Shown here piece after piece: positions 24,292 through 41,045 of a stretch of 64,000 bases of DNA. Within the stretch, counting starts at the first letter, position 1. The number at the start of each line of letters is the position of its first letter. The stretch comes from a virus. The notes below the pieces were generated by a model, which was not told the DNA's origin, made no database searches, and was given only the letters and a program-made list of their open reading frames with translations. The DNA is taken from IMG/VR virus record IMGVR_UViG_3300029267_001061, positions 1-64,000 of that record, one strand, 5' to 3'. The position numbers and the translations under genes are program-made.

Positions 24292-24304
24292 CTAGGAGAC
24301 GGAC

Positions 24305-25465
24305 ATGTCCATAGCAAGCGCACTGAGTGCAGCAACGAGCTTCGCCGAAGGAGTCGTCGACACTGCGCTCTCTTTCACACAAACAGCCAGCGAGTTCTTG
24401 GCTGACTTCCCGTTCCCGATGCCCACCATTGGGCTCGGATCTTTCTCTGCTATCCCGACCTCCAACCCGTTCAACCTCGGGCCGAGTGAACCAGAGCAAA
24501 CTAAGCTCGTCATCGGGGGAGCCGTGTTCCAGGTCGTCAGCCGTGAAACCCTCACCGAAACTCTAGACCCGCAGAAGCATCCTGTGGAAACGAGTCATCA
24601 GATCATGGACCACGCTTGGCGTGACCCGCTGAAGATCTCAATCCAGGGCTGGTTGATTGGGTATCCCCGTGAGACGGAAGTTCACAAGCGGGCCTTGGAG
24701 CAACTTCAGAAGCTGAAGGAGGATGCCACACCTATCACCCTGGTCACAGACTTTCCACCCGGCCAAGTGAAGGACATGCTTCTCGTCTCGCTGAAGGCCA
24801 CCCGGAAGATGCCTTGGGGCAATGGCTATGAGGTAACTGCTGAGTTTGAACAGGTTCACTACGTGGACCAGGTCGCCAGCCCTGCCGCTTCTTCCCGCTC
24901 CGATCCGGGCCTCTCGCTCGATGGGATGTCATTCGCGTCGACGGATCTACCCGCCACAAGCAGTCAGGGCCTGCAGACTCCATACTCGCTTACGCTCCCG
25001 AGTCTAGCCGAGATGCCCAGTGGCGACGCTAGTCAGGTTGACAACATGGTCGTATCGTTCGCCGGAGATATCCCCAGCACGGACATGGCTCTGGCCCTTG
25101 ATGCTTCGTTCTCTGACATGCAGGCTGAGAAGTCAGCGGGACTGGCAATCGTGGAACAGTTCATGAACGGCGACAACCAGGCGTACGAGGCACTCCGAGA
25201 AGGATCCAGCGTACTGCCCGACGGGCCTGGAGTAATCGACAACATGTGGGACGCGCTTCATCAAGCGCAAGGGCTATCCGCCGGTCCCCAAGTGGTCGAT
25301 TCCGACAAGGCGCCAGCAGCACGATCATTCGACCAGCAACTGCGAAGTGAAGGAATCACTGCTGAGTCGGTCGCCATGGACTTGATCAGCAAGACGATTG
25401 GAAACGCAGCGGCGAACACCGCCAAGTCGGATGCCGCGAAGATGCTAGCGAGGTGGGTCCGATGA
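24305..25465 (+). CDS. Dit-like baseplate protein
   Basis: A 386-residue protein. Residues about 55-185 carry the pattern of the Dit-like N-terminal domain: LVIGGAVFQVVSRETLTETL, then PVETSHQIMDHAWRDPLKIS and IQGWLIGYPRETE, followed by LVTDFPPG and a C-terminal strand ATRKMPWGNGYEVTAEFEQV. The remainder is low-complexity Ser/Ala/Asp-rich helix. Dit-like rings join tail tube and baseplate. It overlaps the next gene by four bases. Confidence 0.62.
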   Translation: MSIASALSAATSFAEGVVDTALSFTQTASEFLADFPFPMPTIGLGSFSAIPTSNPFNLGPSEPEQTKLVIGGAVFQVVSRETLTETLDPQKHPVETSHQIMDHAWRDPLKISIQGWLIGYPRETEVHKRALEQLQKLKEDATPITLVTDFPPGQVKDMLLVSLKATRKMPWGNGYEVTAEFEQVHYVDQVASPAASSRSDPGLSLDGMSFASTDLPATSSQGLQTPYSLTLPSLAEMPSGDASQVDNMVVSFAGDIPSTDMALALDASFSDMQAEKSAGLAIVEQFMNGDNQAYEALREGSSVLPDGPGVIDNMWDALHQAQGLSAGPQVVDSDKAPAARSFDQQLRSEGITAESVAMDLISKTIGNAAANTAKSDAAKMLARWVR

Positions 25466-25845
25466 CCAGTTCAAGACGAGTACAGGCTATCCCAACGCGC
25501 CAAACCTTGATGGACATTCAAGCCCTGCCGCTTCCGGGCGATGTCGTCCTGAAGATGCCTTACACCTGGAAGCAGCGGATCAGTGGGCAGTTCCTCGAGT
25601 TCACGGTTGACTACAACAACTTCGGCAAGTTCTTCACCCTTGCGGTTCGGGACTACCGGGGGGATGAACTCTGCAAGACTGCGCTCACGTACGGGGTGGA
25701 TGCGCTGAGGATGTTCCAGCACATTCCAGAAGTCACGGGTATCCATATCGTACCGTTCGACCCGGCCTTCCGGTACCTGCGCGTGGGCATCCGAACCGAG
25801 AACTTCGGCAACTCGATCCGTCTCTGGTTAGGAGTTGATTCCTAG
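25462..25845 (+). CDS. Baseplate plug protein
   Basis: A 127-residue protein starting at ATG 25462 (ATGA overlap; GAGGTGGG upstream). The sequence LEFTVDYNNFGKFFTLAVRD followed by RGDELCKTALTYGVDAL fits the small plug family found between Dit-like and spike genes in cyanophage-type simple baseplates. It ends one base into the next start. Confidence 0.6.
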   Translation: MTSSRRVQAIPTRQTLMDIQALPLPGDVVLKMPYTWKQRISGQFLEFTVDYNNFGKFFTLAVRDYRGDELCKTALTYGVDALRMFQHIPEVTGIHIVPFDPAFRYLRVGIRTENFGNSIRLWLGVDS

Positions 25846-26612
25846 TGGGCGGCGAGAGCAATGTCCGAGAAGTCAGAGAGGGCCTGAAGAGGTTCGTGCG
25901 CCAGAACATCGAGACGGTGCACATCGGCTTCCTCGCTGTTGTGGAAGAATACCTGGGGCCCGTCATCAACTCGTATGGACGCGGAGAAACCGTTGGAGCG
26001 CTGAAGGCTCGGGCCAACATTCGACCGAAGCAGAAGCGAGTGCTACACGATGGGGAAGAACACGAGCTGAAGAAGATCTGGAACGTACCGGTCAGTTGGT
26101 ACAAGATGGGTGACTTCATCGTGAGGTTCCCCCTCAAGAAAGGCGACGTGGTGATGTGTTTGGTGTCTGAGAGGGCGCTCGACCATTTGATCGTAGATCA
26201 CGATCCCGCGCACCCCCAGCTGAAGGACTTCGCTCGAATCAACGATGCTGTCATCATGCCTTTCGGGGTACGGATGGATGAAGATCCACACACGCCGGAT
26301 GAAGTGCTCGATGGAATCTACTTCGCGTTGGTGGACGACGACAACGCTCCGATCTCGAAGTTCATGATGAAGGCAGACGGAGAGGTGAAGATCGTGGCCC
26401 CGAAGTTCACGGTCATCTCACCCGACATCAACATGGTCGACCATGACGGACCGCAGGTCTCGCGTGTAGGAGACAAGGACGATGATGCAGGCTGCTCGGG
26501 CAATGGCCCCAATGACAAGCTGATCGAGGGTTCTCCATCGATGAAGGTTGCGGATGAAAGTACATACACGCCTGGGGCTATCACTGAGCCCAGGTTCACA
26601 GGAGGTGGATAG
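25845..26612 (+). CDS. Baseplate spike (Gp138/gpV-like) with PAAR-like end
   Basis: A 255-residue protein starting at GTG 25845. The OB-like N-terminal domain (HIGFLAVVEEYLGPVINSYG, NVPVSWYKMGDFIVRFPLKK, GDVVMCLVSERALDHLI) matches Gp138/gpV-type membrane-piercing spikes. A repetitive beta stretch (MMKADGEVKIVAPKFTVISP) follows as in a beta-helix. The end VSRVGDKDDDAGCSG...LIEGSPSMKVAD resembles PAAR tips (RVGD...GSP..V). It should lie on the tail axis below the hub. Confidence 0.7.
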   Translation: MGGESNVREVREGLKRFVRQNIETVHIGFLAVVEEYLGPVINSYGRGETVGALKARANIRPKQKRVLHDGEEHELKKIWNVPVSWYKMGDFIVRFPLKKGDVVMCLVSERALDHLIVDHDPAHPQLKDFARINDAVIMPFGVRMDEDPHTPDEVLDGIYFALVDDDNAPISKFMMKADGEVKIVAPKFTVISPDINMVDHDGPQVSRVGDKDDDAGCSGNGPNDKLIEGSPSMKVADESTYTPGAITEPRFTGGG

Positions 26613-26614
26613 CC

Positions 26615-27040
26615 ATGGCAGTTGAGCCCTATCGCGGACACGTCTCCATGGATGTCACCGAGAAAGAAGGGTACTTCGACCTCCAGCTAGACGACCAAGG
26701 CCGCGTGAAGCTATTGACCGGTGCTCGTGAAGTCGCACAGGCTGCCGAGCTCCGCCTTCGGTTGTGGATGAAGGGTTGGTTCTTGGATGTCGACCACGGG
26801 TTCCCTTGGGAACGAGTTGTGGGTCGGAAAGACTTCACTCGCGAGGAGTTCGTCATGTGGGCGGTGAAAGTGATTCTGCGAGACGAGCGCATTCGCTCAG
26901 TCACTCGCACCGAAGTCATCAGCTTCCCGCCAGATGGTGGCGGACCGCGAGCCAAGGATGGAATCCTGGAGTTCGAGTGGAGAGGGACCACTATGAGTGG
27001 TGAGGAGCTACAACAACGGGTGGAGCTATCCATCCTCTAA
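26615..27040 (+). CDS. Baseplate wedge protein, gp25/gpW-like (Mu gp46-like)
   Basis: A 141-residue protein. FDLQLDDQGRVKLLTGAREV then AELRLRLWMKGWFLDVDHGF and WERVVGRKDFTREEF match the gp25/Mu gp46 family that starts the baseplate wedge, followed by VKVILRDERIRSV. It sits between spike and J-like genes as in Mu and P2. Confidence 0.8.
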   Translation: MAVEPYRGHVSMDVTEKEGYFDLQLDDQGRVKLLTGAREVAQAAELRLRLWMKGWFLDVDHGFPWERVVGRKDFTREEFVMWAVKVILRDERIRSVTRTEVISFPPDGGGPRAKDGILEFEWRGTTMSGEELQQRVELSIL

Positions 27041-27053
27041 GGGGTGATTGATC

Positions 27054-28733
27054 GTGGCTGAACATGGATGGCTCAGATCCGGTTTCGTCCGTAGGAAGTT
27101 CGCCACCATTCGTGACGCGACGTACGAGAAGCTCAGAGAGAAGTGGGGAGACCACATCGATCTGAGCGATGATTCATTGCCGGCGATCTTGATTCAGGTA
27201 CTCCTGTTCGAGATCGGCATCCTGTGGAAGGCTGTGGAGTCGGTCTTCTACTCGCGCTACATTACAACCGCGCGGGGAACGGCACTGGACCATCTCGGAC
27301 AGCGAAGGATGTTGACGAGGCAAGGCGAAACCTACGCGACGGGAATCCTGAAGGGCACTGCGGATGAGGGAACGGTAGTCAATGTGAACACGGTTGTCCG
27401 ACATGCTAGCGGGGCCGAGTTCGTGGTGACCAAGCAACGCACCTTCCCCGCAAGCGGTATCATCGACATCCCGATCCAGGCTTCAGAGTCTGGTCCGGGC
27501 GGGAACAAGGTTGTGGGCGGTACTTGGGTCTACACCCTTGGAGAGGTTGCCCTGTCCGGTGCTGCCGAGGAACACAACTTCGAGACCTTCGATGATGCAC
27601 TGATCACGGGGTACTCGTACCTGCCGGCGGAGGAACGGTTTGACACGTATCAGGAGGTTGACGTCTCAGACCTGCGTTACCCGCTCAGTCTAGACACGCT
27701 GGCAGTTCCGATCAAGAACAACAGCGATCAAACTGAGATCTTCTACTTCTACCTGGTTGTCAGGGACAAGGATACGGGTACTTACATCGGGCAAACGCAG
27801 ACTAAGCACCTGTCCCTTGAGGCTGGCACTGAGCAAGTCGTTTCATTCGACGGGCAAGACATCGATGTGTCCGACTACACTACCGTCGAGGTCTCCTTCG
27901 TCTTGGCTTATGGGAGCTCGGCTGCGCTGGGCTTGGCGGTCAACAACACCGCCCCATACAACGGAGGCTACTACCTGCAGGGCGAAGCTCAGACAGGGTA
28001 TGATGTGTGCTTGGTGGTCACCACGATCGCCGGCGGCAAAACCACAGGAGGCCAGTACGAGGAAGGAGATTCGGAGTTCGCTTTCCGCCAGCAACGAGCA
28101 ATGGCGAAGGGCGCTGCTGCGATCCCCGAAGCCATTGAATCTCACTTGTGGGATGTGGATGGAGTTCGCCATGTGAAGGTGGACTTCAATCCGACACTCG
28201 TCGAGGATTCAAACGGCGTGGGGCCGAAAGCCGTCAGGGCTACGGTCGCCGGCGGTAAGGTCCGCGACATTGCGGAGGCACTCCTCGAACATGGGGTCTG
28301 CGCTGGCATTGCGACCGACGGAACAAGCACTCTAAGTGTGCTCGACTCCACTGGAGGCCAGTCAATCCCCGTATCTTTCGAGAGACCGACGGAGATTCCG
28401 GTGTACATCCGCGTTCGAGTTATCCCCGAGCGGGCGAGCTCGATTCCGGAAGCACTACACAACAAGATCCGAGATGCGGTCATCTCCTACGTGGGCGGTT
28501 CGCTTGTCGATGGCACGGACATGCGCGGCTTGAAGCCTGGTGAAGATGTCTCGGTTGCTCAGATCCATCATGCTGTCTGTTCGTTCCGCGGAGTACAGAG
28601 CGCGGTCGTTCGACTCTCTCGAGTGGAGATTCCGGAGACGGACAGCGAAGGAGAAGGTTCGGACTTGGAGATCTTGGTTGGTAACCCGGTCGAGATCGCG
28701 ACCACAAAGGCAGCGTACATTGAGGTAGTCTAA
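27054..28733 (+). CDS. Baseplate J-like protein (Mu gp47/T4 gp6-like)
   Basis: A 559-residue protein. I chose GTG 27054, six bases after GGGGTGA, over TTG 27048. The N-terminal part (GFVRRKFATIRDATYEKLRE, SVFYSRYITTARGTALDHLG, RMLTRQGETYATGILKG) and the C-terminal part (PTEIPVYIRVRVIPERASS, VAQIHHAVCSFRGVQSAVV) are those of baseplate J family wedge proteins. Residues about 190-335 look like an inserted beta-sandwich (FYFYLVVRDKDTGTYIG...VSFVLAYGSSAALGLAV). The last base of the stop is the first base of the next start. Confidence 0.82.
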   Translation: MAEHGWLRSGFVRRKFATIRDATYEKLREKWGDHIDLSDDSLPAILIQVLLFEIGILWKAVESVFYSRYITTARGTALDHLGQRRMLTRQGETYATGILKGTADEGTVVNVNTVVRHASGAEFVVTKQRTFPASGIIDIPIQASESGPGGNKVVGGTWVYTLGEVALSGAAEEHNFETFDDALITGYSYLPAEERFDTYQEVDVSDLRYPLSLDTLAVPIKNNSDQTEIFYFYLVVRDKDTGTYIGQTQTKHLSLEAGTEQVVSFDGQDIDVSDYTTVEVSFVLAYGSSAALGLAVNNTAPYNGGYYLQGEAQTGYDVCLVVTTIAGGKTTGGQYEEGDSEFAFRQQRAMAKGAAAIPEAIESHLWDVDGVRHVKVDFNPTLVEDSNGVGPKAVRATVAGGKVRDIAEALLEHGVCAGIATDGTSTLSVLDSTGGQSIPVSFERPTEIPVYIRVRVIPERASSIPEALHNKIRDAVISYVGGSLVDGTDMRGLKPGEDVSVAQIHHAVCSFRGVQSAVVRLSRVEIPETDSEGEGSDLEILVGNPVEIATTKAAYIEVV

Positions 28734-29740
28734 TGCCTACACAACCTCTCACGACGACCGTTGATGAAGTCCTCGGCAGATTGATCGCCAGACTTGACCA
28801 CCGATGGAAGCGACAGGCGAGCGAGCTTCCCGCAACGGCATTGTCCTATGGGTTCCTCGCATCCTGCTCTGTGGAACCAGCTGTGGTCTGGGAGGTGCTC
28901 CACGACATTGGGGAGTTCAATGACATCGCGAACCTGCGAGATGTCCCGCTAGACCTGGAGTTGGCGGACTACGACCTCGTGATCACGGAGAACTGGGACA
29001 ATGATACCAAGCTCTGGTGGCTGAAGCTTCACCTGATGTTGTACTCATCCGCAGGCCTGATCCCCGAGATCAAGTTCCTGCTGGCGTTCCTCTTCTGGGG
29101 GAAGCAGTACACAGGTGAATGGAATCCAGTCGACGTCTATGCTTGGCTGAAGCAATACGCGGCGCAGATCACAGTGGAAAACAACTACTGCCCGATCTGC
29201 AAGTACTATGAACCAGCGTTCTACACCATCAACTTCCCAGTCGCTTGGCTGAGCAACATCGCAGCCGAGGACTACATGAGATGGGATCCGAACGACGATG
29301 ATGAATTACACGAAGCCCCAGCCAACGGTTGGGGAACCGGGAGGTGGTACGAAGGAGAACAGGACTGGGCGGCCACAACGCTTCAGTTCTTGCGCAGAGC
29401 TACAGCGGCTGGCGTCCGTTTCAACGCCCTGGGGACCCAAGGGTTCCAGTGGGATCCCACTGGGGATGACGAGCTACATGAGACGGAAGAGCACGGCTGG
29501 GATACAGGCCGGTGGAACGGGCCGATCGAAGAACTACTTCGAGAGTACAGCTTACTGCCTGAGTATCAGGCATGGTTCCATGTGTGTCAAGCATCGGAAG
29601 ACGAGTTCCCTTGGGAATCAGTTGCCAATCTTCCGCCTAAGCAGCCGTTCCAGTGGGACCCGAACCCGGATGATGAGTTCCATCGGTCCATGACCAGGGG
29701 ATGGGCATTCGGGGCCTGGGTTGAGATTGATGAAGACTGA
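28733..29740 (+). CDS. Tail protein I-like with WDP repeats
   Basis: A 335-residue protein directly after the J-like gene, the position of gpI/Mu gp48-type proteins that join baseplate and fibre. The first 130 residues are helical (LGRLIARLDHRWKRQA, TKLWWLKLHLMLYSSAGLIP). Three copies of a 22-residue motif begin at W184, W240 and W308 with the form WDPxxDDELHxxxxxGWxxGRW. Function of the repeats is unknown. The gene ends just inside a promoter-like sequence. Confidence 0.6.
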   Translation: MPTQPLTTTVDEVLGRLIARLDHRWKRQASELPATALSYGFLASCSVEPAVVWEVLHDIGEFNDIANLRDVPLDLELADYDLVITENWDNDTKLWWLKLHLMLYSSAGLIPEIKFLLAFLFWGKQYTGEWNPVDVYAWLKQYAAQITVENNYCPICKYYEPAFYTINFPVAWLSNIAAEDYMRWDPNDDDELHEAPANGWGTGRWYEGEQDWAATTLQFLRRATAAGVRFNALGTQGFQWDPTGDDELHETEEHGWDTGRWNGPIEELLREYSLLPEYQAWFHVCQASEDEFPWESVANLPPKQPFQWDPNPDDEFHRSMTRGWAFGAWVEIDED

Positions 29741-29750
29741 GGGCTATAAT
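29721..29750 (+). promoter_or_regulatory. Sigma70-like promoter before tail adhesin genes
   Basis: TTGAGA (29721-29726) and TATAAT (29745-29750) with an 18-base spacer; the -35 box is identical to that at 8504. The -35 box lies in the end of the upstream gene. It would drive the genes from 29773 on. Confidence 0.6.
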
Positions 29751-29772
29751 GCCCTGAGGAGGTAGAGGACAA

Positions 29773-30414
29773 ATGTCACTGATTACACTACAGTTCCCGC
29801 CTTGGGAAGATGAGGGGACTCTGCCGCCGTCTGGGAAGCGTAACTTCGTTGCTGGGTACTACCCGAAACCGCAGTATCACGATGCTCTGATGTACCGGAA
29901 CCGCGCAGATCATGAAACCTTCGCGACCTACATCGAGCAGTACGGTACCGCTCAGCACTTCCTGTTCGACGACATGCTCACGCTTAGTGGGATGGCTTCA
30001 GGCCAGCCCCCGGTTGCAGCGGTTGTCGGACGATGGCCCGTGTTCCAGTTCGCTCAGAACATCGTGCCTTCTGGTGAAGTCCAAGAAGTCTATGTCTTCC
30101 CTCGATTCGCCGGAACGACTGGCTTCGTCTACATCCAGTGGAGTTCACCGGATACGACGGGGAAGAATGTCGTCTGGGGAGTTGACGTGCAGGCAATCCC
30201 TGTTGGTGGAGATTTCGCATCTTCAGGTGCCGCGACAACGGCGATCTGTGCGGACACCGCACTGGCCGATGTTCGGAACCAGTCGAAGATTGCGATCGGG
30301 CCCGTAGCGGCTGCCGGATACATGTTAGGTATCCGGGTATACCGCGACTGGGAAAGCGCTAACGATGACCCGATCACTGCGAACTTGCACGCGATCTGGG
30401 TCCTCACGGTATAG
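29773..30414 (+). CDS. Tail/fibre-region protein, unknown
   Basis: A 213-residue beta-rich protein behind GAGGAGGTAGAGGAC. The region LTLSGMASGQPPVAAVVGRW...PVFQFAQNIVPSGEVQEVYV and later GYMLGIRVYRDWESANDDPI looks like a carbohydrate-binding or jelly-roll domain, similar to phage fibre accessory proteins, but I recognise no family. First gene after the promoter at 29721. Confidence 0.6.
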   Translation: MSLITLQFPPWEDEGTLPPSGKRNFVAGYYPKPQYHDALMYRNRADHETFATYIEQYGTAQHFLFDDMLTLSGMASGQPPVAAVVGRWPVFQFAQNIVPSGEVQEVYVFPRFAGTTGFVYIQWSSPDTTGKNVVWGVDVQAIPVGGDFASSGAATTAICADTALADVRNQSKIAIGPVAAAGYMLGIRVYRDWESANDDPITANLHAIWVLTV

Positions 30415-30422
30415 GAGGGGCC

Positions 30423-30767
30423 ATGTCCGGATTCCTTGACCCGAAACGCTACGGCGGGGTCGATGTCGGCGTGTTCGCCAGCAGACCAGCCCCAGATGCG
30501 GTGCCCGAGGAGTTTGTCTACGTCGCCGTGGACACGACTTCCATCTACGCGGTCCAGAGTGGAGCGTGGGTGAAAGTCGCTGATCTGACGGCGGGCGTAG
30601 ATTGGTCGGAGCTCACGAACAAGCCTGACGAGTTCCCACCTGAAGATCACGACCTTGACACTGCGCACACGGGATCACTGAGCATCACGCGTGTTCTCGG
30701 CCATGACCAGTGGGCCCCGGCTCACTACCGAATGGCTCTGATGGCGCAAGTGCTCGGAAAGATGTAA
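30423..30767 (+). CDS. Short fibre-like protein
   Basis: A 114-residue protein. WSELTNKPDEFPPEDHDLDT is a form of the WSxLTNKPxxFPPxxH segment common in the shafts of phage tail fibres, here followed by a short helical end (YRMALMAQVLGKM). It may be a fibre attachment or assembly part for its larger neighbours. GGAGGGGCC precedes the ATG. Confidence 0.6.
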   Translation: MSGFLDPKRYGGVDVGVFASRPAPDAVPEEFVYVAVDTTSIYAVQSGAWVKVADLTAGVDWSELTNKPDEFPPEDHDLDTAHTGSLSITRVLGHDQWAPAHYRMALMAQVLGKM

Positions 30768-30778
30768 GGAGGTAGAGA

Positions 30779-31858
30779 ATGAGCGTAACGTGGGGTGACT
30801 ATACCCTGAAAGAAGCGCTCTCGAACAGCGACGGCTCCTGGCTGGAGTCGACGTTGGCGAAGAAGCACGGGTTGTGTGTGATCGCTGCCACAAACGTATC
30901 CAGCCCGGGTATCCAGCCGACCATCAAGATCGAGGACATTGACCACCGCGTCATCCTCGACACCGGCTCGGTCCCGTACACCACCAGCTACAACTGGTAT
31001 CACTCGCGGTACTACTACCGCTATTGGTACTACCGGTATCGCTGGTACTGGTACTACAGGTGGCACTACTACCACCCGCTGAACACCCGTGTGGTCCTGA
31101 TTGTGCCCACCGAGGATGGAACGGTTCGAGCGAAGGCTGAGGGTTCTCAGATCTTCGACTTCCGCCTGTCTGTCTTCGAGGCCGGCCTGACCCCTTCCGC
31201 CAACAAGGAAGTTCAGAGCGTCGGATTCAGCAAATCGATCCAGGCTCCGATCACGCGAGGAAGCACCGCACGATACAGCTTCCAGCAGGACGACATTGTC
31301 GTCGCGATCGGTGTCGACGGAAGCCGGAACTACGCGTTGGCTGACATCAGCTACAACGGGCCGGCCAAACAGGAACTCTTCAACATCCTGCCGAACTACG
31401 GTGGCGTGTCGAATCGAGTTCGCGTATGGCGCATCAAGGCCGACGGCGAGTGTACTCTGACGTACAACTACTGCCACTACGGTCGAATGGCAATCCGCCT
31501 GATGCCGAACGCTGAAGAGAAGACGACCGTGCCGCCGTCCATTACTGAGGACCGCGCGTACTTCGAGATTCAGTGCGAAGTAGACGCCTTCGGTAACGTG
31601 GAGCGCGGCAAGTGGTTCGAGGGGTTGTATTCGACGTTGAAGAACAGCCGCAACATGGGACTGCGAAAGTCCTGGACGCGAGAGGTTCTTGAAACGGACA
31701 CGGACTCCCTTGGCCGCCCGGTCAACGTGAAGGCTCGGAGGATCGAGATGTGGTCGGTCCCACAGAGCAAAGCTGGTTCGGTCGGAAGCGATGCACTCCT
31801 CTTCGAGGATCGTGCTGAAGCTGACGCCCGCATCATCGCGAACGACAACCAGTGGTAG
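30779..31858 (+). CDS. Virion-region protein with Tyr/Trp/Arg-rich segment
   Basis: A 359-residue protein of unknown family. Residues 71-99 contain 14 Tyr, 5 Trp, 5 Arg and 3 His in 29 positions (for example SRYYYRYWYYRYRWYWYYRW), flanked by ordinary beta-rich sequence (KIEDIDHRVILDTGSVPYTT before, HPLNTRVVLIVPTEDGTVRA after). The C-terminal half has a helical part (FEGLYSTLKNSRNMGLRKSW). It lies in the adhesin region behind AAGGAGGTAGAGA, so a structural or receptor-binding role is likely. The aromatic segment may be a sugar- or membrane-binding surface; that is inference. Confidence 0.62.
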   Translation: MSVTWGDYTLKEALSNSDGSWLESTLAKKHGLCVIAATNVSSPGIQPTIKIEDIDHRVILDTGSVPYTTSYNWYHSRYYYRYWYYRYRWYWYYRWHYYHPLNTRVVLIVPTEDGTVRAKAEGSQIFDFRLSVFEAGLTPSANKEVQSVGFSKSIQAPITRGSTARYSFQQDDIVVAIGVDGSRNYALADISYNGPAKQELFNILPNYGGVSNRVRVWRIKADGECTLTYNYCHYGRMAIRLMPNAEEKTTVPPSITEDRAYFEIQCEVDAFGNVERGKWFEGLYSTLKNSRNMGLRKSWTREVLETDTDSLGRPVNVKARRIEMWSVPQSKAGSVGSDALLFEDRAEADARIIANDNQW

Positions 31859-31871
31859 GAGGTGAAGACAC

Positions 31872-32465
31872 ATGTTCGGTAAGAGTCTAATCCCGTACGA
31901 GCCAATCGCTCCCGCGGAGACCATGATTGATGGTGCAACATCGGACGCCAGCTGCCCGGGATTCAAGCTCGTGCAGACCGGTGCGTCGTTCACCTCTTCC
32001 GTCAAGGAAGGCGACCTCGTTATTCACGGCCCAGGTACCGCCGGTGCCAAGTCTGCATACGTGATCGAGGTTGAGAACGACACTACCCTGCTGCTCGATG
32101 AGAACTTGGAGTTCGACTCCGATGACTTCGACATCCGCAGGCCAAGTGAGCTCTCGATCCGCCCGCCTGAACTGGTCGAGTGGGTTCTGCGCTCGATCCG
32201 CACGGGTAAGGGAGACCAGGTGAATCGCATCGGTATGTGGTTCAGCGACGGCTTCCGCAAAGTGCTGGTGCTTGACACCAAGCGCCTGTACACTGAGAAG
32301 GGCTTCGACCTTTCATCGGATGACCCCACCGGATTCTGGATGGAGAATCTCGATCTCTTCGTCACCAACGAGAAGGAGATCCTGATTCGCAACTGCTGCG
32401 ACGAAACCGCAGATGTCATCGTCATGGGTATCAACAAGACGGTGGACATCGGCGATCAAGGCTAA
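31872..32465 (+). CDS. Structural-region protein, unknown
   Basis: A 197-residue protein behind TAGGAGGTGAAGACAC. The first 90 residues are beta-rich (SSVKEGDLVIHGPGTAGAKS, ENDTTLLLDENLEFDSDDF), the rest mixed (GMWFSDGFRKVLVLDTKRLY). No family recognised. Its neighbours are adhesin-like genes, so it is probably part of the tail tip or whisker. Confidence 0.6.
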   Translation: MFGKSLIPYEPIAPAETMIDGATSDASCPGFKLVQTGASFTSSVKEGDLVIHGPGTAGAKSAYVIEVENDTTLLLDENLEFDSDDFDIRRPSELSIRPPELVEWVLRSIRTGKGDQVNRIGMWFSDGFRKVLVLDTKRLYTEKGFDLSSDDPTGFWMENLDLFVTNEKEILIRNCCDETADVIVMGINKTVDIGDQG

Positions 32466-32474
32466 GGAGGAACC

Positions 32475-32963
32475 ATGGACGTGAAAGCACTGTTCAGGTT
32501 CGACGGTGACCCAGTCGAGGAACAGCTGGATCTGACAACGGACGTTGTGAAGATCAAGGTTATTCCTCGCAAGAAGGACGGGACTCCCGGCTCCAAGGCT
32601 GTGTGGAAGACCGCTGAAGAGATGGACTCCAACGACGATGTCGTACGGGATCCTCTGACCCAGCGGCCAGTCACGAAGACCGAGGAGACGGATGTAGTCG
32701 TCGACTGCCCCAACACGAGCCGTGTGGAGTGGCCGGTTACGACTGGTCTCGAGAGGACCGACATCATCGAAGCTCCAGACACATACACCAAACTGGTGTG
32801 CGTGGAAGGCGCACTGGAACTCATACAGCTGCTCGACAGTCAGGAGAACGCAACACTCCTGACGTGGATGGAGGCGCAGGCACTTGGAGCGGGATGGGAC
32901 GAGAAGTTCCAGCTCGTTCAGCATGTGCTTCCGACCGGCGTCATCAGCGGGTTCCCGGAGTAG
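32475..32963 (+). CDS. Structural-region protein, unknown
   Basis: A 162-residue protein behind AAGGAGGAACC. It starts MDVKALFRFDGDPVEEQLDL and contains a Thr/Asp-rich middle and a helical end (LELIQLLDSQENATLLTWME). No family recognised. It is followed by a stable UUCG hairpin. Confidence 0.6.
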   Translation: MDVKALFRFDGDPVEEQLDLTTDVVKIKVIPRKKDGTPGSKAVWKTAEEMDSNDDVVRDPLTQRPVTKTEETDVVVDCPNTSRVEWPVTTGLERTDIIEAPDTYTKLVCVEGALELIQLLDSQENATLLTWMEAQALGAGWDEKFQLVQHVLPTGVISGFPE

Positions 32964-32982
32964 CAACTAAGTGCGAGAGCCG

Positions 32983-33006
32983 CCTCCCGGCCTTCGGGCT
33001 GGGGGG
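32983..33006 (+). other. Stable UUCG hairpin between genes
   Basis: CCTCCCGGCC pairs with GGCTGGGGGG (two G-T pairs) around a TTCG tetraloop closed by C-G. There is no T run after it, so it is more likely an RNA stability or attenuation element than a complete terminator. Confidence 0.5.
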
Positions 33007-33029
33007 TACTCTCCACAGGAGGTTACGAA

Positions 33030-33515
33030 ATGAGTGAGATGCAAATCAAGCCCGAAGATCGACTTGGTGAAGTTCGCGCTGAGACTGACCTGGTACGCGA
33101 GCGCGCACAGCATGTGCAGCGCACGTTGATGGACCTGAAGAGCCGCGGCGCCGATGTGACCAAGACGCAAGTCAAGGCTACGATCGACCAGATCGACATT
33201 GATGCTTTGGAAGAGAAGTGCGACGACCGCGTGTCGCTGAAGGTCTGGGATCCGGAAGAGAACGACGGGCTCGGCACGTTCGTGAACTCGGTTCAGAATC
33301 CGAAGGAGCACTGGCCGATTCTCGCTGAGGACGGCGCTCGCGCCATCATGATCTTCCAGGATGGCAAGTGCGTGCAGTTCCAGTACGAGAGCCCGCAAGG
33401 CGGGATTATGGGAGAGGAAGAAGCCATCGAACAGGCCAACTACTGGCATGATCAGCGAGTATCGCGTCTTCTTGAGAAGGAGCTTACCGAAGCAGTTCTC
33501 GACGCGCTCGGGTAG
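33030..33515 (+). CDS. Structural-region protein, unknown
   Basis: A 161-residue, charged and partly helical protein (VRAETDLVRERAQHVQRTLM; DDRVSLKVWDPEENDGLGTF; RVSRLLEKELTEAVLDALG). No signal peptide or membrane segment. Family unknown. It may be a chaperone or linker for the two kelch-like genes that follow; that is a guess from position. Confidence 0.6.
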   Translation: MSEMQIKPEDRLGEVRAETDLVRERAQHVQRTLMDLKSRGADVTKTQVKATIDQIDIDALEEKCDDRVSLKVWDPEENDGLGTFVNSVQNPKEHWPILAEDGARAIMIFQDGKCVQFQYESPQGGIMGEEEAIEQANYWHDQRVSRLLEKELTEAVLDALG

Positions 33516-33525
33516 GTGAAGAGCT

Positions 33526-34674
33526 ATGGCAGAGACAATGTGGTGGAGTGTGAATCGTTGGTACCCGCTCTGTCGCCCTGATGAGCTAGGGGGAACCGGG
33601 ACTGCTGCGCCGACTGAGGAATGCGCAGCCTTCGTGCACGGGGATGACATCTTCCTGTTCGCGAATCAGGCGGTCCGGATCAGGTTCCTCAATCGATCTT
33701 CGGGGTACCTCGGCAAAGGGTACTGCCATGAACGAGCAAACATGGCGCGCTCCGTGACTAGGGCGATGTTGCAGACCTTCCTTCGCACGGGGACGGATCA
33801 GATCTTCGTGATGGATGGGTACAACGGCTTGAGTAGGTACCAGTGGTACGACGTGAGCGCGAACACGTGGACAGCAGTGACCGACGTCCAGCCTCCGTCG
33901 AACATCTATGAGTCAGCTTGCCTCTACTTCCCATCCCTGGACAAGTGCTTCATGCCTGAGGGATCCGGGGACCGGAACGGATTCGTGGAGTTTGACCCCT
34001 CAGTGCCATCATGGACCGAGAAGACCGACATGCCGTTCGACGCCGCGTTCTTCTGCGCAGGGGTCATCGGCAGCAAGGCGTACATCGCAGATGGGGCCTA
34101 CCTTTACGATGACACGAATCGAACGTATGAGTATGACCCGGCATCCCACACGTTCACGGCGAAAGCAAACTGTCCAGACACCCATCAGCGGTGCACCGGC
34201 GCCGTCCTCGACGGAATCCTCTACAAGATGGGGGACAACATCAACAGCGAGCAGTGTCATCTCTCGGGGTACGATCCGGCGAGCAACACATGGACCTCGT
34301 ACCGAACGATAGCAACGGGCACTCGATACGGTGAGAATGGCTGTCCTCGGCTCCTTGCTCTGGAGAGCGCGGGGATGCTTGTCATGGTTGCCGCAGTGAC
34401 CGGCACTGGGAGCTACAACTTCCCGTGGTACGGGATCATGCCGAGAGGGGTCACGGTTTCCGGAACCCTCAAGAACAAGTCAGGTGGCAACGTCGATGGG
34501 GACCCCGTGATCGCCATTGGGCTAGAGCATCCTCAATTCGTCGGGGCCGCGGGGGAAGCTGGCAGCGGGACCTTCTCTCTTGAGGTGCCGGGACCCCAGT
34601 CTTCCGCGAAGCTGATCGGAATCATCGGGTGGCCAGAGAGCGATGCGGTCGCCGGAACAGTGAAGGTGGTGTGA
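33526..34674 (+). CDS. Kelch-type beta-propeller adhesin, copy 1
   Basis: A 382-residue protein with kelch-like repeats: YDVSANTWTAVTDVQPPSN, FDPSVPSWTEKTDMPF, YEYDPASHTFTAKANC and YDPASNTWTSYRTIA, each a Y/F-D-P...W-T unit with Gly-rich strands between. After the propeller (to about residue 325) a small Ig/regulatory-like domain begins at VTVSGTLKNKSGGNV. Propellers of this type in phage tails are probable receptor-binding modules. No signal peptide. A paralogue follows directly. Confidence 0.72.
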   Translation: MAETMWWSVNRWYPLCRPDELGGTGTAAPTEECAAFVHGDDIFLFANQAVRIRFLNRSSGYLGKGYCHERANMARSVTRAMLQTFLRTGTDQIFVMDGYNGLSRYQWYDVSANTWTAVTDVQPPSNIYESACLYFPSLDKCFMPEGSGDRNGFVEFDPSVPSWTEKTDMPFDAAFFCAGVIGSKAYIADGAYLYDDTNRTYEYDPASHTFTAKANCPDTHQRCTGAVLDGILYKMGDNINSEQCHLSGYDPASNTWTSYRTIATGTRYGENGCPRLLALESAGMLVMVAAVTGTGSYNFPWYGIMPRGVTVSGTLKNKSGGNVDGDPVIAIGLEHPQFVGAAGEAGSGTFSLEVPGPQSSAKLIGIIGWPESDAVAGTVKVV

Positions 34675-34675
34675 G

Positions 34676-35842
34676 ATGGCTGAGAACTATCCCGCATCCT
34701 GGCGAAGGTGTGGAATGGTCAGTAGCCCGTTGGGGAGTGACACGGTCTGGGCCGTGTTCCCGCGACGTGCAAACGGACGACTACAGGTCTTCCGGGGTGA
34801 CGACTGGTACGAATGGGAACCATCGACTGACACGTGGACTCAGATATCTACCGACATCGGGAGGAACTACATCTACCGAGGCTACATCTACCGCCCTGAC
34901 TTGGATGTGATGCGATCGTTCGCTGGGCGATCCGGGAGCTACAGCTACGACGACTGCTACGAGTACGATCTCGCGGCAGAAACCGAGACGGCCTTGAACC
35001 TCTTCGATGAAGGGAATACGCAGCATGTTCAGGCAGTGCAGATCAGCGGCTCTACCTGCCTGTGCTTCACAGATTACTTCACGTACGAATACGACTGGGA
35101 CTCCGACACGTACACCGAGAAGACTGACATGTCATTCAATCTCGAGGCTTCCAAAGGGAAGATCGGATTCGGGGTCTACGGGGGGAAGGTGTACGTCATC
35201 GGGGAGTCTGGAGGTTCCTACGACGGGGACAAGGTCCTTGAGTTCGATCCGGTTGCGAATGCGTGGACTGCCTACAAGACCGGAGGACTCCCGAATCCGT
35301 CATGGGGGCCAGCAGCGACGTACTTTCAGTACGGTACAGGCGAGCAGGTGGGGAACCACATCGTCTTCGTTCCGGGTTACACCAACCACGACGGAACGAC
35401 CTACCCACAAAGCCGGGAGAGGTGGATCGTCAGTTTCGACATCCCGAACAAGACGTGGCATTCCTGGGACACGGTTCCGGATCATCAAGAATGGGCGTAC
35501 ACGCATTACCATGGGCTCTTTCACTTCCGGGGCGAGATCTTCCTGTCCTGCGGGGGTACGGACATGGGCGGCATGGTCCACGCTCCGATTGGAGAGACTG
35601 AGGTGAGCGGCGTCGTCCGAGACAAGGATGGGGCGTTGGCCGCTGGCGTGACGGTGTGGGTCGTTCCGAAGTGGGCGCCGCATCTCGCCATGACCGGGAC
35701 GACGGATGGATCGGGAGAGTTTTCTGTCACGTTGCCGACGTTGGGGCCGGGGCAGTATGACGCAGCCGTGGACAAGAAGATCGCCGTCTTCACCGCAGAG
35801 GAGTCGACAGCAAACTCAGTAAGGGTGAATATCAATGCCTAG
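34676..35842 (+). CDS. Kelch-type beta-propeller adhesin, copy 2
   Basis: A 388-residue paralogue of the preceding gene, one base after its stop. Kelch-like units include WYEWEPSTDTWTQIST, YEYDLAAETETALNLF, YEYDWDSDTYTEKTDM, LEFDPVANAWTAYKT and FDIPNKTWHSWDTV. The C-terminal domain (VSGVVRDKDGALAAGVTVWV...GTTDGSGEFSVTL) is a clear carboxypeptidase-regulatory/CnaB-like fold. Tandem duplication followed by divergence suggests adaptation to two receptors. Confidence 0.75.
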   Translation: MAENYPASWRRCGMVSSPLGSDTVWAVFPRRANGRLQVFRGDDWYEWEPSTDTWTQISTDIGRNYIYRGYIYRPDLDVMRSFAGRSGSYSYDDCYEYDLAAETETALNLFDEGNTQHVQAVQISGSTCLCFTDYFTYEYDWDSDTYTEKTDMSFNLEASKGKIGFGVYGGKVYVIGESGGSYDGDKVLEFDPVANAWTAYKTGGLPNPSWGPAATYFQYGTGEQVGNHIVFVPGYTNHDGTTYPQSRERWIVSFDIPNKTWHSWDTVPDHQEWAYTHYHGLFHFRGEIFLSCGGTDMGGMVHAPIGETEVSGVVRDKDGALAAGVTVWVVPKWAPHLAMTGTTDGSGEFSVTLPTLGPGQYDAAVDKKIAVFTAEESTANSVRVNINA

Positions 35843-36557
35843 TTACCAAGCTCCAGCGAAAGATGAAGTGAAACTGGTTTCGGGAGGCATTCAGGCTAAG
35901 CAGGGCCGTACATCTGTAGCCCTGCAGTACGCTGACTGTGTTATGTGTTGCCCGGCACTCGAAGAGGACACCCGAGATGAGAACACGGTAGAGCTTGACT
36001 TCGACCTGTTCCTGTTCAACCCTCAAGCTGATCAGATCATCATTGAACGAAAGCTCGGAGCAGCAGGGGAGTGGGGGCCTGTTCAGACGATAGATGCAGA
36101 CACGACCGACTGGACAGACCCCACTACGCTGAAGGAAGGGAACGAATACTACTACCGAGCTCGGTTCCGAGTCAACGGAAGTCCCCAGCTGTACTCGGAA
36201 TACTCGATCTCCCTCGAGGTCTGGACGGATCGGATCCTCATGATCACCGAAGTACGCGACCACGAATCCAACCTGATGGCCGGCGCACTCGTGATGGCTT
36301 TCTCCGAGAACTACATCTGGCAACAGATCGCGGAAACGGCAGCCGGTGAGAATCTGCCTACCCTGACTTATGATCATGACACCGTGCTCTCCCGGAATGT
36401 GACTGGCTTCATCCGGTGCAACCGAACTGATGAGGATGGACAGTGCAACATCACCATTCCAGGAAAGCCCGGCAAGGTGTCGGTCTGCTTCGTGGATCCG
36501 AACGAGCAAACCATCGGTGGAGACATCAAGACCCACATCGACCCCAAGGAGGCATAA
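35835..36557 (+). CDS. Fibronectin III-like tail protein
   Basis: A 240-residue protein overlapping the previous gene by 8 bases. Residues about 50-130 look like a fibronectin type III domain (DQIIIERKLGAAGEWGPVQT, then NEYYYRARFRVNGSPQLYSE). The C-terminal 100 residues look like a second, regulatory-like beta domain (EVRDHESNLMAGALVMAF ... RTDEDGQCNITIPGKPGKV). Probably part of the adhesin complex. Confidence 0.6.
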   Translation: MPSYQAPAKDEVKLVSGGIQAKQGRTSVALQYADCVMCCPALEEDTRDENTVELDFDLFLFNPQADQIIIERKLGAAGEWGPVQTIDADTTDWTDPTTLKEGNEYYYRARFRVNGSPQLYSEYSISLEVWTDRILMITEVRDHESNLMAGALVMAFSENYIWQQIAETAAGENLPTLTYDHDTVLSRNVTGFIRCNRTDEDGQCNITIPGKPGKVSVCFVDPNEQTIGGDIKTHIDPKEA

Positions 36558-36560
36558 CAC

Positions 36561-39497
36561 GTGGCTGTACCCGGTAAGCCTACGAGTCTACTGTGTGACG
36601 GACTGACTGATCCTCAAGCGGTCGGTTCGCTTCGTCCTGCGCTCTCGGCGGTTTGCGGTTCGGGTGGAACAATCACGCATGCAGAGATCCGCGTCTTCAA
36701 GAAGCACGTCGAGGACGACTTCGAAGACACTGCTCTGCAAGACTACTGGTCGGGGCCGATGACACGCGACACCGTCAACAAGAAGAATGGATCCGCGAGT
36801 CTCTACATTCCTGAAACTGGTGGTGACACGTACTGGAGGATCTCGAACGGTGATCCGATCGCGACACACGGGGATCCGGATGCGATCGTCTCAGAAGACT
36901 TCGAGGGGGGGACGCTTCCGAGTACGTGGGACACAGCGGGTGGCGCCGAGATCACAACTGAGCAGAAGTACGCAGGAACCTACGCCGTGAAGCTACCCTA
37001 CGATTCAGGTGGTCCGAACGGGGTGTGGAAAGCTCCTCTCGCTGATCGAGCGTCAGTCGCAGGGGGCGGCGAGCTTCGCATGCGAGTCTACGTCGCAGGG
37101 ACAGGACAGAGGCGCGTCTATCTCTACTCGCGGCCTCGAGATGCAGATGACTCCTGGTCGAACATCGGGATCATTCGCTTCTACAACGGGAATCTGGACT
37201 TCTACAATGGATCGAGCTACGTGACGATCTGCAGCATGAACGCAAGCGCGTGGCACGAGCTTCGAGTGGCATGGATGGGCGTTCCGTTCGGGGAATCGAA
37301 CTCATGGTTCATGCTCACACTCGACGGGACTTCGTACTTCGTGAAGGGGCGGTACACGGCCAACATCACAGAGGAGGTCTTCTGTCAGATCTCGGCCGTT
37401 GATGAGTCGGTTCACATCTACATCGACGATCTCGAATGGGGCGATCGCCTTCCGAATACGCTCGGAATGGCTGGACGCTTCCGGTATTGGTTCAGGGTCA
37501 ACGAATCCGGCTACAACCAATGCTACCTCTACGGGGAGAATGGATCGTCCCCGGCGTGGGGATACATATACTACTACTACGACGATGTCAGGCTGAACTC
37601 GATCTACCTCGTGACGAACGGAATCAGCTATGGATCGTGGTACAAGCAGGACATCATCAGCATTCCGAAGACAGACGACCTCGACATCTACACGAAGAAT
37701 CATTGGGATCTCGCTCAGGATGGATCTGGCTCTGTTGCTGACTGGGATGACCCTCTCGCGGCGATGCGATGGGATGACGACACGACCGAGATCAACATCG
37801 ACGACTTCGCATTCCTGACAAGCTGGTGGCGGTCGGGAGAGATCGACATCGAAAACTTCGCGTCGGGCGGTCGGTGTGCAGACATCCCGTACTCGGGCGA
37901 CTGGCTCGATGCCGCTGGTCTGTGGGAGTACGAGTGGCAGATCAGATTCAAGAACGCCGATGGGTGGGGCGACTGGAGCGACTGGGCAGAGTTCAAGGTG
38001 ACGCCGATCCAAGTTCGAGGCTATGCAGATCTGCGGGTGTGGGCCAAGCGAGACTTGACCGCGGGGATCCAATCCGTGGATGTCAAGACGGGAACCTACT
38101 TCAACCTGAACCCCATCAGCTACCACGATGTCAAAACATTCGTGAAGGTCATTGATGCCCAGTTCCCTGGACCAGGCGCAATCACCCTACAGGCCCGACC
38201 TTTCGCAACATCCGATCCACAGGACATCGAACTCGCAGCTGGCGTACAAGACGCCATCGAGTTGGCTTTCTGCGACTTGTTCGCCGATCTGGGCCGCCCG
38301 ATTGAACATCCTGTGGATCTTCTCACTACAGCGACTCGAATGACCGAGAACGTGGGTGATCTTCTTACTCATGCTCCGCTTCAAGTAGAGAACATTGCAG
38401 ACGTGTACACCGATGCGCGGCGGCTGATCGAGAAAGCTCACGACATGATGGCGGATCTTACTCGCTCGGTAGAACGAGCCATCGACCTGAGGGCTGACCT
38501 CTCCCGATTCTACGAGCGAGCGGTGGATCTCTTGTCCTACCTGCAATTGTTCAAGGACGAGGCGGGGAAGAGTGATCTACTCGCCGAGCTCTTGAAGCTG
38601 TACGAAGCGGGCATCGTTGACATCCTCACGGATCTACAAACCAACGTGGAGTTCACACATGACCTGAAGGCTGACCTGATCCGAGCCACCACCGGAACGG
38701 TCGATCTCCGCGCTTGGCTGCGTCGTTGGGAAGAAGAGAACGGTTCGGATGTATTCACTGACGCTAGGATAGAACGAGAAGGGGTCGTGGACCTGCTCGC
38801 CGACTTGGCCCAGAGTTGGGACCCTGCCGCATTGGCAGACATCAAGTCAGACCTGGTGTTGGCACTAGAGGACATGTCCATTCAAGTCGATATGCTATCG
38901 CTGACTCGCCTCCTCCGACCGCGCGTGGTAACTGTGCCCCAAGCCGGTGGAGACCCACGGGAGATCATTCTCCGCGCCTACAACGACCCATACACAGGAG
39001 AGCCTTGGGTGGATGACCCGCCCACAGATATCCAGCTCATGGCGCGCTCCGGTTGGACAGGCATGGAGGGCGGTTGGGGCAGCAACATCCACGCCGATCT
39101 TGCACATTCACCGTTGTGGTATTGGAAGCACGCGACGGCGGATCTGCGAACGGCGATGTATTGGAGCATCGATGACATCGGCGCTGGAGACATGAACGTG
39201 GATCTGGCGCACTTCAAGTTCAACCGCCACGCCGGATGGCAGATAGCGATTCGACTGGCCGTTCTTCACGAGCAGACCGCTGATATGCTGGCGAAGCTCG
39301 GTCAGATAGTAGACCTCGAAACATGGGACCAGCTGCAGAGCAAAGTGGAGATCATGTCTCGAGATTCGCAGATCGAACTGATGGCTCGGATTGACGTGAC
39401 CGAGCTACTCACGCGTGAGAAGACAGTGGAGATCCTGGGCCGTGAAGCGGTGATTGAGAAACTCGAACGACTCTGGGAGGTGCGCGATGCCAACTGA
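36561..39497 (+). CDS. Large fibre protein with lectin-like domains and 14-residue repeats
   Basis: A 978-residue protein starting at GTG 36561 behind AAGGAGGCATAACAC. Residues about 45-290 hold a concanavalin/LamG-like region (EDFEGGTLPSTWDTAGG, YAVKLPYDSGG, LRMRVYVAGTGQRRVYLYSR) followed by related beta sequence (TNGISYGSWYKQDIISIPKT). From residue 572 to about 776 there are about fourteen consecutive repeats of near 14 residues with the form DLLADLxRxxExAV. The C-terminus is helical with more DL repeats and ends LERLWEVRDAN. Likely the long tail fibre or a receptor-binding fibre. Confidence 0.68.
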   Translation: MAVPGKPTSLLCDGLTDPQAVGSLRPALSAVCGSGGTITHAEIRVFKKHVEDDFEDTALQDYWSGPMTRDTVNKKNGSASLYIPETGGDTYWRISNGDPIATHGDPDAIVSEDFEGGTLPSTWDTAGGAEITTEQKYAGTYAVKLPYDSGGPNGVWKAPLADRASVAGGGELRMRVYVAGTGQRRVYLYSRPRDADDSWSNIGIIRFYNGNLDFYNGSSYVTICSMNASAWHELRVAWMGVPFGESNSWFMLTLDGTSYFVKGRYTANITEEVFCQISAVDESVHIYIDDLEWGDRLPNTLGMAGRFRYWFRVNESGYNQCYLYGENGSSPAWGYIYYYYDDVRLNSIYLVTNGISYGSWYKQDIISIPKTDDLDIYTKNHWDLAQDGSGSVADWDDPLAAMRWDDDTTEINIDDFAFLTSWWRSGEIDIENFASGGRCADIPYSGDWLDAAGLWEYEWQIRFKNADGWGDWSDWAEFKVTPIQVRGYADLRVWAKRDLTAGIQSVDVKTGTYFNLNPISYHDVKTFVKVIDAQFPGPGAITLQARPFATSDPQDIELAAGVQDAIELAFCDLFADLGRPIEHPVDLLTTATRMTENVGDLLTHAPLQVENIADVYTDARRLIEKAHDMMADLTRSVERAIDLRADLSRFYERAVDLLSYLQLFKDEAGKSDLLAELLKLYEAGIVDILTDLQTNVEFTHDLKADLIRATTGTVDLRAWLRRWEEENGSDVFTDARIEREGVVDLLADLAQSWDPAALADIKSDLVLALEDMSIQVDMLSLTRLLRPRVVTVPQAGGDPREIILRAYNDPYTGEPWVDDPPTDIQLMARSGWTGMEGGWGSNIHADLAHSPLWYWKHATADLRTAMYWSIDDIGAGDMNVDLAHFKFNRHAGWQIAIRLAVLHEQTADMLAKLGQIVDLETWDQLQSKVEIMSRDSQIELMARIDVTELLTREKTVEILGREAVIEKLERLWEVRDAN

Positions 39498-39837
39498 AGT
39501 ATCAGGCCCCTTCATGCAGGGGAACAGCTGTAGGGTTACATTCAAGACGAAAGACTGGGATGACCTACAGACCTCGGCTGAAGAGATGGCAGCCAGCATC
39601 TACAAGTTGAAGGACAACGGCGAGCTGGAGGCCCTGCCTGATTTCCAGGGGGTAACGCCAGCTCCAGACACAAGTTTCTGGGAAGAGCTCGCGGGGGAAT
39701 ACCGCTACAAGATCGACACGTCGACCTTCAGCAGCGGAACTTACTACGTAGTCTTCGCGGGCAAAGTTAGCGGTGACGGGTTCAAGGAGCCAATCAGCTT
39801 CCAAGTCACCAACGATCCCACAGCAGTAGGAGGTTGA
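39487..39837 (+). CDS. Small tail-region protein, unknown
   Basis: A 116-residue protein starting at ATG 39487, 11 bases inside the end of the fibre gene and behind GGGAGGTGC. Short beta-rich sequence (GNSCRVTFKTKDWDDLQT; GEYRYKIDTSTFSSGTYYVV), like the small Ig-like proteins found next to fibre genes. It could decorate the fibre or tail. Confidence 0.6.
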   Translation: MPTEVSGPFMQGNSCRVTFKTKDWDDLQTSAEEMAASIYKLKDNGELEALPDFQGVTPAPDTSFWEELAGEYRYKIDTSTFSSGTYYVVFAGKVSGDGFKEPISFQVTNDPTAVGG

Positions 39838-39841
39838 AGCA

Positions 39842-40603: not shown

Positions 40604-40621
40604 GTCAGGAGACGACGGACA

Positions 40622-40867: not shown

Positions 40868-41003
40868 AAGGAGGAAATCTATCGAAGCTACGCTCTCCTG
40901 GTCTAACTACTCGGTTGGGTGATCGAGGAGCGGAGAACCAGGAGCTCGTTACATCTCACATACGATTGGGAGCGGTAACCCCTATCCCGGACTCGCCCTC
41001 ACC

Positions 41004-41045
41004 GGGAGGTTGCTCAGGGGAAGCCGCTCCCTTCTCTGTTACTTG
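41004..41045 (+). terminator. Possible terminator at the convergent junction
   Basis: GGGAG (41004-41008) and CTCCC (41027-41031) could form a short stem, followed on the + strand by TTCTCTGTTACTT. It lies between the last rightward and the last leftward gene. The stem is short, so confidence is limited. The 171 bases between the two genes (40868-41038) hold nothing else that I can identify. Confidence 0.35.

What the first reader, a model, noticed from the sequence alone, without database searches (positions are those of the whole stretch)
30989..31075. A 29-residue tract with 14 Tyr, 5 Trp, 5 Arg and 3 His in a tail protein
Such density of aromatic and basic residues is very unusual. It could be a glycan-binding or membrane-contact strip, or a self-associating segment like those in adhesive or phase-separating proteins. 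The nucleotide tract is built from varied TAC/TAT/TGG/CGC/CGG codons, so it is not simple slippage.
Basis: seen in the sequence. Interest (0 to 1): 0.78.

Follow-up and report, generated by a model that had tools for sequence, protein, structure and literature searches.

The report
Aromatic-basic tract in phage tail-region protein
A tail-region protein of an uncultured contractile-tailed phage contains 29 consecutive residues of which 27 are tyrosine, tryptophan, arginine or histidine; the stretch is real, correctly framed and without a known counterpart, and is most likely an exposed sticky loop for contacting the host surface, though no function is shown.

Summary
ORF 30779-31858 (+, 359 aa) carries YNWYHSRYYYRYWYYRYRWYWYYRWHYYH at 30989-31075: 14 Tyr, 5 Trp, 5 Arg, 3 His, no acidic or aliphatic residue. 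Y+W is 19 of 29; the highest value in 3,253 ORFs from about 2 Mb of other sequence, mostly phage, was 10. A second contig (7 SNPs in the 16.9 kb around it) has the identical tract, so an assembly error is unlikely. No slippage periodicity, reverse transcriptase or diversity-generating template was found. A new rival, that the tract is an out-of-frame reading of Thr/Gly-rich fibre DNA (frame +1 reads TTGITRGTTTAIGTTGIAGTGTTGGTTTT), was tested: 0 of 40,000 codon-usage simulations of that peptide gave 27 or more Y/W/R/H in frame 0, while frame 0 fits the phage's codon usage. The Thr/Gly reading is a forced shadow.

The gene follows baseplate genes and precedes Kelch-type genes, so a tail-tip role is inferred. 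The protein has no relative found beyond its near-identical twin, so conservation could not be tested; structure models are useless (pLDDT 31 and 39). Best reading: a surface-exposed aromatic/basic contact loop of a tail fibre or adhesin (about 0.42).

The parts
30779..31858 (+). Orphan 359-aa protein (P0001), presumed tail-fibre, adhesin or baseplate-periphery protein
   Evidence: ORF; Shine-Dalgarno-like GGAGGT upstream; lies after baseplate J (27048-28733) and before Kelch-type genes; frame-0 codon usage best in nearly all sliding windows along the gene; no homologue
30989..31075 (+). 29-residue Tyr/Trp/Arg/His tract, residues 71-99
   Evidence: identical in IMGVR_UViG_3300017989_000298; frame tested; rarity
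27048..28733 (+). Baseplate J / gp6-like wedge protein (context)
   Evidence: PF04865 2.7e-11, phrog_6 3.3e-44
28733..29740 (+). 335-aa tail-tip protein with three WDPxxDDEhH..GWxxGxW repeats (context, no family)
   Evidence: sequence
30423..30767 (+). 114-aa gene just upstream with a fibre-type DWSELTNKPDEF stretch (context)
   Evidence: phrog_2163 virion structural protein, E=6e-4, weak
33526..34674 (+). Kelch beta-propeller-like protein (context, candidate adhesin)
   Evidence: Kelch_2 and Kelch_3 above cut-off; phrog_16120 virion structural protein 3e-9
34676..35842 (+). Second Kelch-like protein with a C-terminal Ig/CarboxypepD_reg-like domain (context)
   Evidence: weak Pfam matches

Best explanation
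P0001 is a tail-tip (fibre, adhesin or baseplate-periphery) protein, and residues 71-99 form a solvent-exposed loop or beta-hairpin between two otherwise ordinary segments. The side chains Tyr, Trp, Arg and His make it a sticky contact strip for the host envelope: aromatic rings stack on sugar rings, and Arg/His bind phosphate, carboxylate or sulfate groups of LPS or other surface glycans. Shown: the tract exists, is in frame, is encoded as such by codon usage, is not a slippage product and very unlikely an assembly error, and its gene lies among baseplate and putative adhesin genes. Inferred: exposure, hairpin or loop form, and host contact.
For: Position between baseplate J and Kelch-type genes. 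Tract has 5 Arg and 3 His, no acidic and no aliphatic residue, which argues against a buried core or transmembrane segment. The codon pattern (a run of pyrimidine-purine-N codons) is reproduced only if the frame-0 peptide is what is coded. Tyr, Trp and Arg are contact-making residues in designed binding sites: binary Tyr/Ser or Trp/Ser paratopes suffice for specific binding (PMC3498902). The low-confidence model of residues 40-130 puts strands at 68-75, 78-87 and 90-98, compatible with a hairpin but not evidence at pLDDT 39. Other tail-tip proteins of the same phage also have aromatic-rich stretches (10 and 8 Y+W in 29 near 37557 and 34805).
Against: No homologue, so no conservation of the tract or its chemistry. 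No structure: full-length model pLDDT 31 and it draws the tract as a helix, contradicting the fragment model. No proof that P0001 is in the virion. The arrangement of basic residues shows no significant two-face pattern (p about 0.2; 1 of 5 angles tried gave p=0.02).
Confidence: 0.42

Rival explanations
1. Self-association or assembly segment: the tract is an intermolecular aromatic zipper (beta-strand stacking plus cation-pi contacts between Tyr and Arg) that holds copies of P0001, or P0001 and a partner, together in the tail tip.
For: Tyr and Arg are the classic sticker residues of condensates (literature located, e.g. PMC12677899, abstract read only). High beta propensity of Tyr/Trp (established knowledge). 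Tail-tip location.
Against: One short tract, not a long multivalent low-complexity domain. No structure. No partner known.
Confidence: 0.22
2. Unselected or structurally neutral low-complexity loop: an orphan, fast-evolving loop whose composition drifted and has no specific role.
For: No relatives at all, so no evidence of purifying selection.
Against: 27 of 29 residues in four types, mostly metabolically costly Tyr and Trp, is hard to reach by drift; no repeat structure that slippage could have produced; the first codon position of the tract is almost purine-free.
Confidence: 0.17
3. Membrane-interface segment: the cationic, Trp-rich tract inserts into the lipid A or phospholipid head-group layer during tail contraction, in the manner of Trp/Arg-rich antimicrobial peptides such as tritrpticin and indolicidin.
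For: Trp+Arg-rich, cationic composition without acidic residues, as in tritrpticin-type peptides (PMC4790384, abstract).
Against: Tyr, not Trp, dominates; no aliphatic residues; flanked by an ordinary folded-looking protein. No indication that it is at the puncturing tip: the hub and the likely spike genes are elsewhere (23194-26612).
Confidence: 0.13
4. Double-frameshift relic: the DNA was a Thr/Gly-rich fibre segment in frame +1 (TTGITRGTTTAIGTTGIAGTGTTGGTTTT) and compensating indels now make it read as Tyr/Trp/Arg.
For: In viral contigs the DNA pattern for YY[RWC]YWYY is nearly always read in another frame, most often the +1 frame as Thr/Gly/Ile-rich coding sequence (66 of 104 hits, 63 of them in ORFs of at least 100 codons; none in frame in a long ORF except the twin contig). 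The +1 frame is open over 30882-31079.
Against: If the +1 peptide had been coded with this phage's codon usage, frame 0 would hold 17+-2.4 Y/W/R/H residues; 0 of 40,000 simulations reached 27. Third positions of the +1 reading hold one purine in 28 codons against about 50% expected for Thr, Gly and Ala codons. +1 synonymous usage is at the 0.8th percentile, frame 0 at the 45th. Conversely a Y/W/R tract coded with normal usage gives a Thr/Gly-like +1 shadow (26+-1.2 T/G/A/I, observed 28).
Confidence: 0.03
5. Nucleic-acid contact segment or another intracellular role (P0001 not a virion protein).
For: Tyr/Arg-rich segments can bind nucleic acids (own knowledge); no direct evidence that P0001 is in the virion.
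Against: Gene lies inside the tail block between baseplate and Kelch-type genes.
Confidence: 0.03

Closest known systems
Minimal-alphabet synthetic binding loops (Tyr/Ser, Trp/Ser paratopes; PMC3498902)
   Same: Recognition surface made almost only of Tyr/Trp (plus Arg)
   Different: Man-made antibody CDRs with small spacer residues (Ser/Gly); this is natural, has almost no spacers, and its binding is unproven
Glycine-rich-motif adhesins and variable tips of phage fibres (gp38 of T-even-like phages; own knowledge)
   Same: Adhesive tip loops in tail proteins with exposed aromatic residues
   Different: No glycine-rich framework, no sequence similarity found, and P0001 is not shown to be an adhesin
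Diversity-generating-retroelement variable regions of phage tail proteins
   Same: Aromatic-rich binding residues in a tail-tip protein (own knowledge)
   Different: No reverse transcriptase and no template repeat in the 67-kb record; tract identical between two contigs
Trp/Arg-rich antimicrobial peptides (tritrpticin, indolicidin; PMC4790384)
   Same: Cationic, Trp-rich composition
   Different: Tyr-dominated, internal to a 359-aa protein, no activity data

Membership tests
Phage tail fibre / receptor-binding protein | Encoded in the baseplate/fibre gene block | tested here: met
   Between baseplate J (27048) and Kelch-type genes (33526, 34676)
Phage tail fibre / receptor-binding protein | Sequence similarity to a known fibre, tailspike or adhesin family | tested here: not met
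   No PHROGs, Pfam, NCBIfam or PDB match, with or without the tract
Phage tail fibre / receptor-binding protein | Present in the virion and binds a host receptor | not testable with these tools
   Needs virion proteomics and binding assays
DGR-diversified tail protein | Reverse transcriptase in the genome | tested here: not met
   PF00078 absent from the 67,331-base record; rings in 4 of 14 control genomes
DGR-diversified tail protein | Template repeat differing from the variable region only at template adenines | tested here: not met
   No 60-nt candidate with at most 12 non-A mismatches in the record
Slippage-generated homopolymer or tandem repeat | DNA periodicity or repeats beyond composition | tested here: not met
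   Codon-shuffle test of 13 periods (lowest p 0.03) and longest exact repeat 9 nt against 10.8 expected; TRF finds no array there
Phase-separating low-complexity domain | Long, disordered, multivalent sticker-spacer region | tested here: not met
   Only 29 residues and hardly any spacer residues; disorder itself not tested
Out-of-frame artefact of Thr/Gly-rich coding DNA | +1 reading fits the phage's codon usage better than frame 0 | tested here: not met

The most novel reading that the evidence does not exclude
A natural recognition loop of a phage tail protein built from an almost pure four-letter alphabet of contact residues (Tyr, Trp, Arg, His), the counterpart in nature of the minimal synthetic paratopes, giving broad, sticky attachment to envelope glycans.
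Probability: 0.2. Interest if true: 0.68.

Novelty: new variant of a known kind. Interest (0 to 1): 0.4.

Why it matters
If the tract is an exposed contact loop, it would show that a natural virus uses a binding surface almost wholly of Tyr, Trp, Arg and His, as known from designed libraries, and would provide a compact test case for how much specificity such a surface can have. It also gives a practical caution: DNA that can be read as Tyr/Trp runs is, elsewhere in viral genomes, mostly Thr/Gly-rich coding sequence read out of frame, so similar first-glance findings need a codon-usage test as done here.

Tried and rejected
Frame error or double frameshift: tested by per-frame codon usage and forward simulation, rejected. 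The reverse-strand ORF 30725-32005 over the same DNA was rejected as coding by its poor codon usage over the tract. Slippage origin: rejected. DGR hypervariable region: no RT, no TR. Assembly fault: twin contig identical over the tract. Relatives sought and not found: viral contigs with P0001 and with the stretch around the tract and by neighbours (17, 31, 58), genome contigs (15), phages, plasmids, 34 capsid-related and 20 PolA-related records (35, 57; the only match there was the twin). The 82%-identical relative (contig IMGVR_UViG_3300017960_000083, L209) covers only window 41.9-59.2 kb, not the tail block. The first six-sequence capsid alignment was too divergent to scan with. Tract-like patterns in bacterial and archaeal genomes: 44 hits, one in frame in a long ORF (L280), without an extended tract. 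Two-face beta-hairpin arrangement of basic residues: p about 0.2, not significant; a nominal p=0.02 at one of five angles was not pursued. Structure prediction full length and residues 40-130: too poor to use, so no fold search was made. The first in-frame survey covered 80 of the 103 pattern loci; searches cover all.

Full report
What is there. Window 30989-31075 (+) is codons 71-99 of a 359-codon ORF, 30779-31858, which starts at ATG behind a good Shine-Dalgarno-like sequence. It reads YNWYHSRYYYRYWYYRYRWYWYYRWHYYH: 14 Tyr, 5 Trp, 5 Arg, 3 His, 1 Asn, 1 Ser, with no acidic and no aliphatic residue. The rest of the protein has an ordinary composition (5.5% Tyr+Trp).

More than chance. Under the composition of the rest of the protein the chance of 19 or more Tyr/Trp in 29 is about 1e-17. 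Empirically, among 3,253 distinct stop-to-stop ORFs of at least 100 aa in about 2 Mb of other loci, mostly phage, the highest count in any 29-residue window was 10. In the window itself the next highest reading in any of six frames is 10. This comparison set is not a random sample of phages: many of its loci were chosen because they contain a tract-like DNA pattern, so it is if anything biased towards finding such tracts.

Not an assembly error. A second IMG/VR contig, IMGVR_UViG_3300017989_000298 (32,421 bases), has the identical gene. It differs from the window by 7 SNPs in the 16.9 kb from 25765 to 42671, and by 20 in the overlapping 20 kb from 38186 to 58185. The two are therefore separately assembled, very close relatives. 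I cannot exclude that they come from the same sampling campaign.

Frame. The most instructive rival came from the search for similar tracts. The DNA pattern for YY[RWC]YWYY occurs in 103 viral contigs, but in none of them, apart from the twin contig, does it lie in frame inside a long ORF. In 66 of 104 hits the longest ORF over the pattern is the +1 frame (63 of these are at least 100 codons long), read as Thr/Gly/Ile-rich protein. In the window too the +1 frame reads TTGITRGTTTAIGTTGIAGTGTTGGTTTT. This raised the suspicion of a double frameshift. Two tests speak against it. First, frame 0 fits the phage's synonymous codon usage (45th percentile), frame +1 does not (0.8th percentile). That test alone is partly confounded, because Thr/Gly codons in +1 force C or G into the third position of frame 0. 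Second, forward simulation: coding the +1 peptide with the phage's codon usage gives 17+-2.4 Tyr/Trp/Arg/His in frame 0, and 0 of 40,000 simulations reach the observed 27; coding the frame-0 peptide gives a +1 shadow with 26+-1.2 Thr/Gly/Ala/Ile against 28 observed. So the Tyr/Trp/Arg peptide is what is coded and the Thr/Gly reading is its shadow.

Origin. No reverse transcriptase in the 67,331-base record and no template-repeat candidate, so it is not a DGR variable region.

Context. The record is a contractile-tailed phage: portal, Mu F-like head protein, head protease, major capsid of the phrog_264 family, sheath, hub and baseplate J. The tract gene lies 2 kb after baseplate J and is followed by small unknown genes and two Kelch-type proteins (33526, 34676). 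That is where fibre and adhesin genes usually lie, but P0001 itself matches nothing in PHROGs, Pfam, NCBIfam or PDB sequences, with or without the tract. 'Tail protein' is therefore inference from position.

Relatives. None apart from the twin contig, in viral contigs, bacterial and archaeal genomes, phage and plasmid records, and 54 records related by capsid or polymerase. The search tools rely on exact 8-residue words in the large collections, so homologues at moderate divergence can have been missed. One close relative of the phage exists (82% identical DNA over 17 kb, L209) but its contig ends before the tail genes. Conservation, the test that would separate function from drift, is thus untested.

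Structure. AlphaFold2 without an alignment gave pLDDT 31 for the full protein and 39 for residues 40-130. The first draws a helix over the tract, the second three strands. They contradict each other and are not evidence. A parity test for a two-faced hairpin was not significant.

How it may work. The composition (aromatic and basic, nothing acidic or aliphatic) fits an exposed contact strip better than a core or transmembrane segment. Tyr or Trp with a small spacer residue suffices for specific binding in synthetic paratopes (PMC3498902). I therefore hold host-surface contact, glycan or LPS, most likely (0.42), ahead of self-association in the tail tip (0.22), a neutral orphan loop (0.17), membrane-interface insertion (0.13), and frameshift relic or non-virion role (0.03 each). 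The ranking of the first four rests on composition and gene order only.

Verdict. Its meaning stays open because relatives are lacking.

Noticed in passing
window 28733-29740: Tail-tip protein with three degenerate repeats (RWDPNDDDELHE..GWGTGRW, FQWDPTGDDELHE..GWDTGRW, FQWDPNPDDEFHR..GWAFGAW); no family match.
   Followed up: partly
window 1681-7569: 1,962-aa protein: Mu F-like head domain followed by a segment matching ADP-ribosyltransferase (PF03496, 3.4e-6) and several further YRG-type segments; looks like a head protein fused to repeated ART-like domains.
   Followed up: partly
window 44752-47157 (-): DNA polymerase I fused to an N-terminal uracil-DNA glycosylase domain (PF03167 3.8e-32, PF01612, PF00476). 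The polymerase of Caudoviricetes sp. MW202455.1 aligns to it over 98% of its length, N-terminal region included, at 42% identity.
   Followed up: partly
window 56978-57466 (-): Histone H1-like Lys/Ala-repeat protein with a long acidic tail (PF07382, below cut-off).
   Followed up: no
window 33526-35842: Two adjacent Kelch beta-propeller-like proteins in the tail-tip block, possible adhesins.
   Followed up: no
L209 (IMGVR_UViG_3300017960_000083): 82% identical relative of this phage covering window 41.9-59.2 kb; a contig with its tail block would test conservation of the tract.
   Followed up: partly
Viral contigs pattern hits L065-L167: DNA readable as YYxYWYY is common in viral contigs but nearly always out of frame, most often as the shadow of Thr/Gly-rich coding sequence.
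   Followed up: yes
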